Position numbers and translations under genes: made by a program. Below the pieces are notes generated by a model. That model saw only the letters and a list, made by a program, of their open reading frames with translations, was not told the origin of the DNA and made no database searches. Below, piece after piece: positions 923-11,196 of a stretch of 11,196 bases of DNA. The stretch is from Eimeria necatrix (Eukaryota; Apicomplexa; Conoidasida; Eucoccidiorida; Eimeriidae): positions 2,501 to 13,696 of the forward strand of contig NW_013654765.1 of the NCBI RefSeq assembly GCF_000499385.1, written 5' to 3'. Positions within the stretch are counted from its first letter, which is position 1, and each line of letters begins with the position of its first letter.

Positions 923-1939
923 ATGCCGGGGCTTTTGGGGCGCGTCGGGGTGGCTGCTGCTGCAGTGGCTGCGCTGGGCGCAGCAAATTCAAGTTTTGCT
1001 GCGGGCGCAGCAGCGGAGGACTGGGCGGCGGCGGCGTCTTCGGGGCTTCCGCTGTCCGCAGCGTTCCCCACGGAGGCAACAGCAGCAGCAGCGTCTTCTG
1101 CTGCTGCAGCAGCAGCAGCAGCAGCAGCAGGAGCGCCGGAAAGCCCGCGTTTCTCGCCGGAGGAGCAGCAAGTGGCGGAGGTGCAAGCCCTGGACGAGAG
1201 CGACTTGCAGCTGCAACTGCGGGCTTTGTATTCCGTTTCAAAAGACCTCGAAATGAAACAAATTTTCCCAGAAGGAAGTCTGGAAGGCATGCAAGAAGTG
1301 CTGAACGAGCTCAGCAGCGTGGAGGAGCAGCAGCGGGATGTTGAACAGTACCTGCGGCGGTTCGCGCTGCTGCTGGGCCGCTCTCTGAACAAATATGGGG
1401 CCTTTTTTAAGTTAAAAGTGGCTTTAGGAGACCCTAGTTTGAAGGGAGAAGCTTATAAGCAGCAGCAGCAGCAGCTGCCGCTGCTGGCAGCAGAGTGGAC
1501 TGCAGCAAACCGGCTGCTGGTGAGCTACCTGCGGCTGGGCGCGCGGGACCTGCGGGACAAGTGGGGAGCAGCAGCAGCAGCAGACAAGCAGCAGCAAGAG
1601 CTGCTGCAGTTCTTCGAGCGGCTTGCTGCAGTCTACGAGCAGCAGCAGCAAGTCTTCCGCTGCGGCTACGCGCTGGCCGAGCTGCGCTACCTGCAGCAGC
1701 AGCACGCTGCAGCAGACCTTGCTGCTCTCCTCTCCGACAGCAGACAAAAAGCTGCTCTTCGAGACTTCGAAGCAGCTCTCGAAACCCTCAAAGAAAACAC
1801 TCATTTAGCGAGAAAGGCAGCAGCAAAACCCGCGAAAAACGGACTCTTCAATCCCAACTTTTTGCTGCTGCTGCCGTTTCCCCCGGACAAGCAGCGCGAG
1901 GCCGACGACCTGCCGCCGCCCGAGGACGACGAGATGTGA
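923..1939 (+). CDS. Hypothetical secreted Ala/Gln-rich helical protein, 338 aa
   Basis: An uninterrupted frame of 338 residues from ATG 923 to TGA 1937-1939. The frame is open further upstream to 761, but no ATG lies there, so 923 is the natural start. Residues 1-27 look like a signal peptide: a basic Arg at 7, an Ala/Val core, then small residues near Ser-Phe-Ala-Ala. Residues 52-69 are an Ala/Ser run coded by GCA repeats. From about residue 78 the protein is charged and apparently helical, with segments such as LQLQLRALYSVSKDLEMKQI and FERLAAVYEQQQQVFRCGYA, interrupted by short Gln and Ala runs. It has one cysteine (247) and an acidic, proline-containing tail ending EDDEM. I see no transmembrane segment after the signal, although residues 313-317 form a short Leu run. 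I do not recognise the family. A parasite secretory-pathway or organelle protein is possible but unproven. Confidence 0.75.
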   Translation: MPGLLGRVGVAAAAVAALGAANSSFAAGAAAEDWAAAASSGLPLSAAFPTEATAAAASSAAAAAAAAAAGAPESPRFSPEEQQVAEVQALDESDLQLQLRALYSVSKDLEMKQIFPEGSLEGMQEVLNELSSVEEQQRDVEQYLRRFALLLGRSLNKYGAFFKLKVALGDPSLKGEAYKQQQQQLPLLAAEWTAANRLLVSYLRLGARDLRDKWGAAAAADKQQQELLQFFERLAAVYEQQQQVFRCGYALAELRYLQQQHAAADLAALLSDSRQKAALRDFEAALETLKENTHLARKAAAKPAKNGLFNPNFLLLLPFPPDKQREADDLPPPEDDEM

Positions 1940-6033: not shown

Positions 6034-7431
6034 GGGGCAGCGTGATGAGGGAAATAAGGCTGGGGAAGGGGAGCTCTCCGACGCTGCACCGTCTGGCTGA
6101 GGTGTACGTACACCGCGCGCTGCTGCTGCTGCGGGGCTGCAGCATTCGCAAAAGCGCCATTTTTCCTTCTTTTGCAATTGTTGCAAAAAGCCAAGAAAGA
6201 GTTTTTGTTTTGCCTCTCGAGGATTTAAAAGTGCCCCTCAGGGCCCTCCATTGGGCCCTCAAAGAAGCAGAAAAAGAAAAGGAAAAAGAAAATGAAAAAG
6301 AAATTCAAAAAGAAATTCCAAAAAAGTCCAAAAATCCAAAAAATGATAATTCAGAGGAACCCGTTTTCACTTTCGCACTTTACCTCAAAAATATACTCAA
6401 GTCCGAAGTCAGTCATTAATTAATTAATTAATTAATTAATTAATTAATTAATTAATTAATTAATTAATTAATTACATATTTATTTATTTATTTATTCATT
6501 TATTCGCTTGTTTGTTTATTGAAATGATTAATTTTTTGTTTGCTCGCCAATGCTTACTAATAAATAATTAATTCAGACAATTGGCCATCTGAATTAATTA
6601 ATTAATTAATTAATTAATTAATTAATTAATTAGCTAATTATGTAATTAAATAAATAATAAATTGGCAAAACAAAGAAACAAATAGCAGCAGCAAGCAGCA
6701 GCAAATGGATTTATTGTTTGCTTTTTCTTCAGGCCGCTTTGCCCTGTTTTGAGGCTTCTTTGGGCCGCCTTTCTCCTTCAACTGTCTCTCTAAAGTCCTC
6801 TCAAATTAAAGTTTTAATCAACTCCAAATGCAGAGGAATATTTATAATTCATTGTTCAAAAAAAGCTCTTTTTCTCAAATTCACAAATCCCCAAACAACT
6901 GTCGCAGACGCCCTTGCGACTTTGCGCACGCAGCTGTACGTACACCGCAGCTGGGGGGCCCCCGGAGGTTGGGGGCCCCCGCCGCCGGGGGGCCCCCCGG
7001 GGGCCCCCGAGGGGGGGGGCCCCCTGGGGCCCCTGGGGGCCCTGGGGAGGCTGGGGGGGGCCCTGGGGGCCCCCAAGGGGGGCCCCCGGGGGGGCCCCCG
7101 GGAGTGCTTTGTGGGGTTTATTTCGCTGAAAAGAAAACAGCAAAGAATGCTGCTGCCGGGGGCCCCCTGGGTGGCTTTGCCGGGCAGTACCCTTTTGTCA
7201 GATGCTGCAGCAGGGGGGGCCCCCCTGCTGCTGGGGCCCCGTGCTGCAGCAGCAGCAAAGGTGTTTTGTCCGAATTACTTGTCCCTTTTTTCTTTTGCTG
7301 AAGAAGTCAAAACCAAAAAGGGTACTTTTTTTGCACTTTCTGTTTCGCAGGGGGCCTCGGGGGGCCCCCGGGAGCAGGGGGGCCCCTTTTTCGGGGGTTT
7401 TACCCTCAAGCCTTTGCAGCCAAACAAATAA
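3698..7431 (+). CDS. Five-exon gene, unrecognised 791-residue Q/A/G-rich protein
   Basis: My model joins 3698-4444, 4791-5111, 5471-5563, 5892-6407 and 6733-7431, ending at TAA 7429-7431. Every junction is phase 0 and all exons stay open. Donors are CAAG/GTTTGT, CGC/GTAAAT, AAA/GCAAGT (GC donor) and GAA/GTCAGT. Acceptors are GCTGCAG, TTATTTAG, TTATTCAG and TTCTTCAG. Exon 1 (residues 1-249) has Gln, Leu and Ala runs, PPPPYNP, and a Gln/Leu/Glu/Arg segment likely to form a coiled coil. Exons 2-4 carry ordinary mixed sequence (for example ISLRLFDEIRIIFEDLP and FVPRILQEEFPETKIK), poly-Ala and 18 serines, and a Lys/Glu-rich stretch. Exon 5 begins with TTVADALATLRTQL-type sequence, then a Gly/Pro/Ala-rich part. 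Two segments (GSEVSVQQLLQQFL and TTVADALATL) faintly recall a ubiquitin-like strand-helix pattern. I do not assign a family. ATG 3698 is the first in frame after a 664-base ATG-free stretch, but an upstream exon is possible. Confidence 0.6.
3967..4146 (+). other. Gln-rich coiled-coil coding segment in exon 1
   Basis: This part of exon 1 codes for alternating Gln-Gln-Leu-Arg and Gln-Gln-Glu units, a pattern expected for an extended charged/polar coiled coil. The DNA is CAGCTGCGG/CAGGAG units, imperfectly repeated and derived from the same CAG expansion, but here diversified by Arg and Glu codons. That suggests selection on the protein rather than a raw expansion. Confidence 0.55.
4445..4790 (+). 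other. Intron 1 of gene 2 (346 nt), TTTA repeats
   Basis: Donor CAAG/GTTTGT and acceptor TTTGCTGCAG. Two long (TTTA)n tracts (about 4459-4570 with interruptions, and about 4693-4780) make up most of the length. The second runs up to the acceptor and may serve as its T-rich tract. Removal joins Glu-Val-Lys to Val-Leu-Leu-Ile-Trp in phase 0. Confidence 0.65.
5112..5470 (+). other. Intron 2 of gene 2 (359 nt), TTTAA and TTTA repeats
   Basis: Donor CGC/GTAAAT and acceptor TTTATTTAG. It starts with a pentanucleotide (TTTAA)n tract (about 5118-5200), has a T-rich middle, and ends in (TTTA)n (about 5367-5469) abutting the acceptor. Phase 0. Confidence 0.65.
5564..5891 (+). other. Intron 3 of gene 2 (328 nt), probable GC-AG intron
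   Basis: The only donor I find that keeps the frame is AAA/GCAAGT at 5564-5569, which matches the strong consensus required of GC donors. The GT four bases later (5568) would shift the frame, and the shifted frame stops at about 6100. The acceptor is TTTATTTATTCAG. The body is mostly (TTAA)n (5611-5666 and several tracts within 5765-5865). Confidence 0.55.
6101..6114. repeat. Palindrome GGTGTACGTACACC inside exon 4
   Basis: An exact 14-bp palindrome in coding sequence, read as Val-Tyr-Val-His within Leu-Ala-Glu-VYVHR. It is followed by CGCGCGCTGCTGCTG. It belongs to the same family as the intergenic copies at 8000-9200. Confidence 0.9.
6408..6732 (+). other. Intron 4 of gene 2 (325 nt), TTAA repeats
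   Basis: Donor GAA/GTCAGT and acceptor TTTTTCTTCAG. It contains (TTAA)n at about 6415-6473 and 6592-6632, TTTA units between, and a small CAG cluster at 6685-6703. If unspliced, the frame would end four codons past the donor at TAA 6417-6419. The long open frame that resumes exactly in phase after the acceptor supports splicing. Confidence 0.55.
6935..6946. repeat. Palindrome core TGTACGTACA inside exon 5
   Basis: An exact TGTACGTACA core followed by CC, read as Leu-Tyr-Val-His-Arg and flanked by CGCAGC/CAGCTG. It uses the same reading frame (YVHR) as the copy in exon 4. Confidence 0.88.
6951..7103. repeat. GGGGCCCC-rich tract in exon 5
   Basis: Runs of four to eight G alternating with runs of three to six C, many forming GGGGGCCCCC palindromes, read in the gene 2 frame as Gly/Pro/Ala. 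Smaller blocks of the same kind recur at about 7157-7173, 7213-7241 and 7350-7397. Several frames on both strands are open because the tract cannot form stop codons, so openness alone is weak evidence for coding. The ordinary sequence after it (ECFVGFISLKRKQQRMLL) supports the chosen frame. Confidence 0.8.
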
Positions 7432-8240: not shown

Positions 8241-8266
8241 GCTTGGGGTGTACGTACACCCGAAGC
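8241..8266. repeat. Extended palindrome around TGTACGTACA
   Basis: The inner 16 bp GGGTGTACGTACACCC are a perfect palindrome. After one mismatched pair the arms continue with GCTT/AAGC. The symmetry reaches beyond the usual 14-bp unit, showing that flanks of some copies are also paired. Confidence 0.75.
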
Positions 8267-8558: not shown

Positions 8559-8699
8559 CACTTTTGGACACTTTTGGGGCTTCGCGAAAGCGGGCATTTG
8601 CTCGCGGTGTACGTACACCGCAGCTGTACGTACACCTGAGAGGTGTACGTACACCTCAGCTGCCCCGCAAAATGCACTTTCCGCGAAAGTCCAAAAGTG
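8559..8699. repeat. 141-bp imperfect inverted repeat with three palindromes
   Basis: The outer arms CACTTTTGGAC (8559-8569) and GTCCAAAAGTG (8689-8699) are exact inverted copies. Further in, TTCGCGAAAG (8581-8590) pairs with CTTTCCGCGAA (8677-8687), and GCATTTGC (8594-8601) with GCAAAATGC (8667-8675). The centre holds three TGTACGTACA palindromes (8605-8620, 8625-8636, 8641-8656). The whole could fold into one long hairpin. I see no target-site duplication and no transposase. Confidence 0.7.
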
Positions 8700-10105: not shown

Positions 10106-10358
10106 CTCGGACGCCAACCTAGCTAGCTAGCTACCTACCTAGCACCCAGCTAGCTAGCTACCCATATACCACCCAGCTAGCTAGCTAACAGCTCCAAGCT
10201 GAATCCTCCAGCGGGAGTGATTTGCCTATATCGCTAGCTAGCTAGCTAGCTAGCTACCCATATACCACCCAGCTAGCTAGCTAGCCCCCAGCTAGCTAGC
10301 TAGCCAACAGCTAGCTAGCTAGCTAGCTAGCTAGCTAACCCAAGCGGCTCCAAGCTCC

Positions 10359-10418
10359 ATGGCGAATCCTCTGGCGGGAGTGATCTTCTACAAAACTCAA
10401 AGCAACCCACACCGCTAG
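10359..10418 (+). other. 19-codon open frame within the array unit
   Basis: Reads MANPLAGVIFYKTQSNPHR then TAG, beginning at CCATGG. The unit at 10675 reads the same except GLILYK for GVIFYK, and the last unit (11149) matches the first as far as the window reaches. I do not recognise the peptide. It may be chance or a relic of coding sequence caught in the array; expression is not shown. Confidence 0.25.
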
Positions 10419-10500
10419 CTAGCTAGCTAGCTAGCTACCCAAATAAACCCCAGCTAGCTAACAGCTAGCTAGCTAGCTAGCTAGCTAGCTAACCCAAGCA

Positions 10501-10596
10501 CGAGGCTCGAGGTACCGCTTAGGAGACCGCCCTCACTAGAAGATGTTTTGAGTTTCGTTGGGTGTGGCGATCGATCGATCGATCGATCGATGGGTT
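10501..10596. other. In-place complemented block 1 of the array (96 bp)
   Basis: Complementing each base without reversing gives GCTCCGAGCTCCATGGCG and onward to ACCCAA, matching the array unit at all 96 positions. The bases before (AACCCAAGCA) and after (ATAAACCCC) continue the unit uncomplemented in exact register. A true inversion would give the reverse complement, which is absent here. Confidence 0.9.
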
Positions 10597-10794
10597 ATAA
10601 ACCCCAGCTAGCTAGCTAGCCAACAGCTAGCTAGCTAGCTAGCTAGCTAGCTAACCCAAGCAGCTCCGAGCTCCATGGCGAATCCTCTGGCGGGACTTAT
10701 TCTCTATAAAACTCAAAGCAACCCACACCGCTAGCTAGCTAGCTAGCTAGCTACCCAAACAAACCCCAGCTAGCTAGCTAGCCAACAGCTAGCT

Positions 10795-11030
10795 TCGATC
10801 GATCGATCGATCGATTGGGTTCGTCGAGGCTCGAGGTACCGCTTAGGAGACCGCCCTCACTAGAAGATGTTTTGAGTTTCGTTGGGTGTGGCGATCGATC
10901 GATCGATCGATCGATGGGTTTATTTGGGGTCGATCGATCGATCGGTTGTCGATCGATCGATCGATCGATCGATCGATTGGGTTCGTCGAGGCTCGAGGTA
11001 CCGCTTAGGAGACCGCCCTCACTAGAAGAT
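10795..11030. other. In-place complemented block 2 of the array (236 bp)
   Basis: Same-direction complement of about one and a half array units. It runs from within a (GCTA)n tract (CAACAGCTAGCT before 10795) to the middle of the conserved block, where AGAAGAT (complement of TCTTCTA) passes to CAAAACTCAAAGC in register at 11031. All (CGAT)n sequence here becomes (GCTA)n on complementing. Confidence 0.9.
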
Positions 11031-11196
11031 CAAAACTCAAAGCAACCCACACCGCTAGCTAGCTAGCTACCCACATAAACCCCAGCTAGCTAGCTAGCCA
11101 ACAGCTAGCTAGCTAGCTAGCTAGCTAACCCAAGCGGCTCCGAGCTCCATGGCGAATCCTCTGGCGGGAGTGATCTTCTACAAAACTCAAAGCAAC

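What the first reader, a model, noticed from the sequence alone, without database searches (positions are those of the whole stretch)
10501..11030. Two blocks of a tandem array are complemented in place, without reversal
In the array, 10501-10596 and 10795-11030 equal the base-by-base complement of the neighbouring units read in the same direction. Both edges of both blocks keep exact register with the uncomplemented array (AACCCAAGCA before 10501, ATAAACCCC after 10596, CAAAACTCAAAGC after 11030). The array itself supplies the uncomplemented templates. All (CGAT)n runs in the array are thereby explained as complemented (GCTA)n. Inversion, foldback or template switching all yield the reverse complement, so no standard DNA process explains this. 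An error in read orientation, gap filling or consensus building is the most likely cause. If raw reads confirm it, it would be extraordinary.
Basis: seen in the sequence. Interest (0 to 1): 0.9.

Follow-up and report, generated by a model that had tools for sequence, protein, structure and literature searches.

The report
Assembly error complementing repeat-array blocks
Two stretches of a repeat array near the end of a draft Eimeria-like parasite contig are written as the base-by-base complement of their neighbours without reversal, and because about a dozen other contigs of the same assembly show the same thing, mostly close to contig ends, it is most likely a software error made while the genome was being assembled, and not biology.

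Summary
Window 10501-10596 and 10795-11030 are the in-place complement of the surrounding array; the four junctions keep register; reverse and reverse complement score near background. The artefact reading is strongly supported and widened. The window ends where its 13,696-base contig ends, so block 2 stops 166 bases from a contig end. In the 44 Mb assembly (CGAT)6 occurs only in these two blocks, against 1,941 + 1,937 hits of its reversal. Reversed-motif searches flagged 18 contigs; 13, including this one, have a resolved in-place complement block (both edges scored on 9, one edge on 4; C627 weak, C814 too simple to tell complement from reversal). Two control base permutations gave no hits. 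Of the 13, 8 have the block within 200 bases and 9 within 600 bases of a contig end. On C994 two blocks are in-place complements of the end of an EF-hand exon whose intact copy lies beside them. Best explanation: reversal without complementing in a gap-closing or contig-end-extension step. The program is not identified; raw reads and the assembly paper were not available. Not a biological feature; a useful quality warning.

The parts
10117..11196 (+). tandem array of about 150-162-base units with (GCTA)n runs; it runs to the end of the contig
   Evidence: Tandem Repeats Finder rows from 10117 on (a 316-base row at 10286-10920); contig C1125 ends at window base 11196
10501..10596 (+). block 1: in-place complement of the array (96 bases)
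   Evidence: 95 of 96 ungapped, 100% in 48-base pieces; junctions 40/40 and 39/40
10597..10794 (+). normal array between the two blocks (198 bases)
   Evidence: serves as uncomplemented template; identical in register to neighbouring units across the junctions
10795..11030 (+). block 2: in-place complement of the array (236 bases)
   Evidence: exact complementary pieces of 63, 108 and 99 bases; junctions 40/40 and 40/40
11031..11196 (+). normal array up to the contig end (166 bases)
   Evidence: window 11131-11196 is 98% and 91% identical to two other normal units; contig length 13,696

Best explanation
The two blocks are in-place complements of the array, and they are most likely stretches that an assembly step (gap closing or contig-end extension in a repeat) took from the opposite strand and reversed without complementing. 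By arithmetic, reversing a reverse-complemented segment S without complementing it gives complement(S), which fits its slot base for base; this accounts for register at the edges, arbitrary boundaries, variable length and normal sequence on both sides. Shown: the same signature recurs on 12 further contigs (one weak, one ambiguous), 7 of those 12 within 200 bases of a contig end. Inferred: which step or program did it, and that the raw reads carry ordinary (GCTA)n units. No biological function is proposed for the blocks; the underlying array looks like an ordinary GCTA-rich minisatellite. The confidence of 0.96 is for an assembly strand-handling error as such; within it I put about 0.6 on this variant and the rest on the first two rivals.
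For: Complement at 98-100% in 13 of 16 blocks scored; the others are C480 89%, C588 80% (scored across a unit boundary) and C627 77%. Junction scores on one diagonal: both edges at 34/40 or more on C1125, C1117, C463, C588, C194, C975, C688 and C480; C814 (exact 8-base flanks). Control permutations A<>G/C<>T and A<>C/G<>T: 0 hits against 270 redundant complement hits in 19 loci, and 0 (12 loci; 6 loci). (CGAT)6 only in the two blocks; (AAATCCC)3 20 hits against 35,428 of its reversal; (CGT)8 5 against 137,111. 8 of 13 resolved contigs have the block within 200 bases of a contig end, 9 of 13 within 600; 0 of the 100 listed normal telomere-like tracts lie within 600 bases of a contig start against 3 of 13 block contigs. 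On C994 two blocks are 98% in-place complements of the end of an exon whose intact copy gives EF-hand_7 at 2.9e-17, while the one open frame scanned through block b gives no Pfam domain. Literature: in one case study IMAGE gathered reads less than 600 bases from contig ends, and it extends or merges contigs in rounds (PMC2884544, passages); GapFiller's authors attribute IMAGE's large genomes to extension of left and right scaffold edges (PMC3446322, passages).
Against: No raw reads were seen. The program is unknown: the paper of the presumed assembly is not held, and that IMAGE was used is not shown. A general orientation bug should hit many closed gaps, whereas about 0.1% of telomere-like tract ends are affected (1 of 1,385; 1 of 1,032), so it must be an edge case. 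Four of 13 resolved contigs have the block 5.6-49 kb from an end (C123, C480, C814, C994). On C123, C660, C994 and C627 only one edge has a scored junction. On C480 plain reversal scores 95%, above complement at 89%, and on C814 both score 100%, so these two short blocks do not separate complement from reversal by composition. N runs were seen only at C1117, ending 1,154 bases before the block, so blocks do not hug open gaps. On C688 two blocks sit at almost the same place in successive units and on C994 two blocks are near-identical copies, which a purely random error would not predict. The contig-end control covers contig starts only, and repeats may be commoner at contig ends anyway.
Confidence: 0.96

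Rival explanations
1. Case-sensitive reverse complement: bases held in lower case (low-quality, filled or soft-masked) were reversed but not complemented when a contig was turned round, because the complement table covered upper-case letters only. This is another artefact with the same in-register output.
For: Explains register, several blocks in one array, sharp edges and enrichment near contig ends, and blocks at almost the same unit position on C688 if the lower-case marking depended on sequence.
Against: It predicts isolated single-base flips; the two window blocks are solidly complemented (100%). I did not scan for flips outside the blocks, and no case information was available.
Confidence: 0.25
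2. Per-base strand flip in a pileup consensus or polishing step: bases from minus-strand alignments were complemented a second time, column by column, where only minus-strand reads covered the contig. Also an artefact.
For: Would give in-register blocks of any length at poorly covered contig ends.
Against: It would be expected wherever coverage is one-sided, also outside repeats; none of the dispersed palindrome GGTGTACGTACACC (2,413 places) is found complemented (at a rate of 0.1% about two would be expected, so this is weak), and a 10 kb stretch of the same contig has none (L006).
Confidence: 0.12
3. A biological process copies or swaps the strands in place so that a segment becomes its own complement with unchanged polarity.
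For: The blocks found lie in tandem arrays and telomere-like tracts, though the searches could only see such places; two pairs of blocks look duplicated (C688, C994), as a heritable change would.
Against: Inversion, foldback and template switching give the reverse complement (established knowledge); a strand-swapped block would need 3'-3' and 5'-5' joins. Reverse complement scores are near background. Concentration within 200 bases of contig ends is an assembly property, not a chromosomal one.
Confidence: 0.01
4. The blocks are an unrelated or diverged repeat that resembles the complement by chance or shared low complexity.
For: The array is rich in simple (GCTA)n runs.
Against: 60-108 exact complementary bases including non-simple sequence, junctions in register, no hits for two control permutations.
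Confidence: 0.001

Closest known systems
Gap-closing and contig-end misassembly in short-read drafts (IMAGE-type local assembly)
   Same: Location near contig ends and in repeats; repeats in or beside the gap are given as the two main causes of misassembled or unclosable gaps (PMC2884544, passages); scaffold edges are extended by IMAGE (PMC3446322, passages)
   Different: The passages seen describe wrong or collapsed repeats, not a base-by-base complement; use of IMAGE on this assembly is not shown
False duplications at contig boundaries ('homotype' duplications)
   Same: Often at contig boundaries and about as long as the reads (PMC8081667, passages); here the blocks lie in local copies mostly about 107-180 bases apart, mostly near contig ends
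   Different: Nothing in the passages seen speaks of a changed strand; here a copy is complemented without reversal
True inversion in a tandem array
   Same: A segment of an array changes strand
   Different: An inversion gives the reverse complement; tested and rejected for both window blocks

Membership tests
Assembly strand-handling artefact | Block equals complement (or reversal) of local sequence, a product no known polymerase makes | tested here: met
   complement 100% for both window blocks in 48-base pieces, reverse complement 52% and 55%
Assembly strand-handling artefact | Recurs at unrelated places of the same assembly | tested here: met
   13 contigs with a resolved block including C1125 (C627 weak, C814 ambiguous), of 18 flagged by reversed-motif searches
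Assembly strand-handling artefact | Enriched at assembly boundaries (contig ends) | tested here: met
   8 of 13 within 200 bases, 9 of 13 within 600; partial control only: 0 of 100 listed normal tracts within 600 bases of a contig start; right-hand ends of those contigs mostly not known
Assembly strand-handling artefact | Raw reads lack the junctions | not testable with these tools
   no reads available
Genomic inversion | Block equals reverse complement of the ancestral segment | tested here: not met
   44 of 96 and 104 of 236; 52% and 55%
IMAGE or GapFiller product | The program was run on this assembly | not tested
   assembly paper not held; searches gave no methods text for it

The most novel reading that the evidence does not exclude
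A polarity-preserving strand swap really happens in tandem and telomere-like arrays of this parasite, leaving segments that are the in-place complement of their neighbours and that can then be duplicated with the array.
Probability: 0.01. Interest if true: 1.

Novelty: not a real feature. Interest (0 to 1): 0.27.

Why it matters
As biology it is almost surely nothing. As data quality it matters: a draft parasite assembly carries a class of error that a check for inversions would miss, that can spoil copies of coding exons (C994), and that can be found with a short test (align each contig to its own non-reversed complement, or count reversed motifs such as (CGAT)n, (AAATCCC)n and (CGT)n). Other assemblies made with the same pipeline would deserve the same scan. 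If reads did confirm the blocks, it would overturn what is known of DNA copying.

Tried and rejected
Inversion, plain reversal and chance were tested and rejected for the window blocks. That only this array is affected was rejected. The first block finder (simple self-mirror repeats such as (AATT)n filtered out beforehand) found no complement hit in L014, L023, L034, L035, L037, L058 and L068; L023 (C480) and L037 (C814) were resolved later by junctions, the other five were not. A register script with strict edges found only part of the junctions and was replaced. Of 18 contigs flagged by reversed motifs, five stay unresolved: C52, C971 and C263 have no local template; C736 and C745 look to me like natural CGT/CAA-type repeats.

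Literature: searches for such an error listed 1 of 1, 3 of 3 and 30 of 81 papers; none looked to be about it by title. PMC8920891, PMC9668749 and PMC6191289 were seen as listings only; of PMC8081667 I saw 12 of 21 passages, all on false duplications; PMC7162515 passages are about reverse-complement queries. I make no claim that the error is unreported. Searches for the assembly methods did not give them; PMC12102361 (passages) does not mention E. necatrix. Rfam: no match in the window. Viral contigs: no match to the block or to the normal unit.

Species: the window protein at 923-1939, searched as 1052-1939, is 87% identical to an Eimeria tenella protein. E. necatrix is a guess resting partly on recalled kinship; its published assembly is 55.0 Mb in 3,707 contigs (PMC7564333, passages), which differs from the 44.0 Mb in 1,148 contigs held here and would fit only if short contigs were left out.

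Full report
What was claimed.

Check of the observation. It holds. The complement of block 1 matches the array at 95 of 96 positions; the complement of block 2 is built of exact array pieces of 63, 108 and 99 bases (178 of 236 as one ungapped whole, since unit lengths vary). Reverse complement and plain reversal match 44 and 47 of 96 for block 1 and 104 and 102 of 236 for block 2. In 48-base pieces both blocks are 100% complementary to array copies; reverse and reverse complement give 52-60%, shuffled blocks 47-51%. A junction score (20 identical bases on one side, 20 complementary on the other, same diagonal) is 40, 39, 40 and 40 of 40 at the four edges, the second and third read from the template side (locus L007; L007 position = window position minus 7,500). 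Over 19 loci the same scan gives 270 redundant hits for the complement and none for two control base permutations, and none in the first 10 kb of the same contig (L006). Simple self-mirror repeats were filtered out beforehand.

Where the window lies. The window is C1125:2501-13696 of a 44,016,600-base assembly of 1,148 contigs, and the contig ends at the window's last base. Block 2 therefore ends 166 bases from the contig end. A window protein is 87% identical to one of Eimeria tenella and 58% to one of E. brunetti, and the sequence is full of GCA and TTTAGGG repeats; the genome is an Eimeria close to but not E. tenella. E. necatrix is a guess: its published assembly is Illumina only and, in a review that lists it inconsistently as tier 2 and tier 3, restricted to automatic improvement (PMC7564333, passages), but its size and contig number differ from those held here. 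The normal array unit was found on C1125 alone (3 places; the tool calls such counts lower bounds).

The test that settles most of it. If a strand-handling error complemented stretches in place, common asymmetric motifs should now and then appear reversed. (CGAT)6 has 4 forward and 1 reverse hits, all in the two blocks, against 1,941 and 1,937 for its reversal. (AAATCCC)3, the in-place complement of the telomere-like repeat, has 20 hits against 35,428, (AAATCCC)2 37 against 52,302, (CGT)8 5 against 137,111. These flagged 18 contigs. Reading them showed the same structure on 13. Both edges score 34/40 or more on C1125 (two blocks), C1117 11155-11273, C463 9801-9861, C588 88-295, C194 583-733, C688 30099-30145 (a second block, 29962-30010, has a scored right edge), C975 17535-17564 and C480 73016-73052. 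On C814 9470-9496 a (CGT)n run sits inside (GCA)n with exact flanks, where complement and reversal cannot be told apart. One edge only is scored on C123 (block about 28188-28295), C660 (from 29487; right edge about 29545 by eye), C994 (two blocks) and, weakly, C627 (about 133-180). Complement scores 98-100% for 13 of 16 blocks, 89% for C480, 80% for C588 (scored across a unit boundary) and 77% for C627; on C480 plain reversal scores higher (95%).

Contig ends. Of the 13 contigs, eight have the block within 200 bases of a contig end (C1125 166, C1117 157, C463 153, C588 87, C660 at most 178, C688 184, C975 159, C627 about 132) and C194 lies at 582; C123, C480, C814 and C994 are 5.6 kb or more from an end (the length of C660 is inferred from a locus cut short at the contig end). 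As a partial control, none of the 100 listed normal telomere-like tracts, of 1,384 found, lies within 600 bases of a contig start, against 3 of 13 block contigs; the right-hand ends of the control contigs are mostly not known, and repeats may be commoner at contig ends anyway.

A coding example. On C994 an intact stretch (L070:1224-1469, minus strand) encodes an EF-hand protein (Pfam EF-hand_7, E 2.9e-17), with a second EF-hand stretch at 1559-1801; it looks like centrin (recalled, not tested). Two nearby blocks (L070 759-859 and 1027-1126) are 98% in-place complements of its end; the one open frame scanned through the second block has no Pfam domain; the first block and the other frames were not scanned. 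I infer that the coding copy is the true orientation.

Mechanism. If a program holds the missing segment S as its reverse complement and reverses it without complementing, the result is complement(S), which fits the gap exactly. This gives sharp edges, register, arbitrary position and no trace of the reverse complement, which is what is seen. In one case study IMAGE gathered reads lying less than 600 bases from contig ends, and it extends or merges contigs in rounds (PMC2884544, passages); it is said to extend scaffold edges (PMC3446322, passages). The positions fit such a step; that IMAGE or any named program was used here is not shown. A case-sensitive complement table and a per-base strand flip in a consensus step would give similar blocks and are kept as rivals. 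The palindrome GGTGTACGTACACC, at 2,413 places, is never found complemented; about 0.1% of telomere-like tract ends are affected (1 of 1,385 and 1 of 1,032), so about two complemented palindromes would be expected at that rate and their absence says little.

What does not fit well. The rarity means an edge case and not a general bug; four contigs have blocks far from an end; N runs were seen only on C1117, 1,154 bases from the block; and paired blocks at nearly the same unit position on C688 and C994 hint at a sequence-dependent trigger or at duplication after the event.

Verdict. Observation confirmed, artefact reading supported and widened. It is not a biological feature. Raw reads would settle it finally.

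Noticed in passing
whole assembly; in the window e.g. 2926-2939, 6101-6114, 8247-8260, 8606-8619, 8642-8655: The 14-base palindrome GGTGTACGTACACC occurs at 2,413 places in the 44 Mb assembly, sometimes in short arrays with 20- or 26-base spacing; its reversal was not found. Function not examined.
   Followed up: partly
L070 (C994:48400-50200): The end of an EF-hand (centrin-like) exon has two diverged local copies, both stored as in-place complement.
   Followed up: partly
C588:88-295, C194:583-733, C463:9801-9861, C660 from 29487, C688:29962-30010 and 30099-30145, C975:17535-17564, C1117:11155-11273, C480:73016-73052, C123:28188-28295, C814:9470-9496, C627 about 133-180 (weak): Further in-place complement blocks in the same assembly, in local repeats with shifts of about 107-180 bases.
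   Followed up: yes
C52:36354, C971:143, C263:15394: Reversed telomere-like or CGT repeats without a local template; may be further complemented blocks.
   Followed up: partly
window 923-1939: Intact 338-residue protein, 87% identical to an uncharacterised Eimeria tenella protein and 58% to one of E. brunetti.
   Followed up: partly
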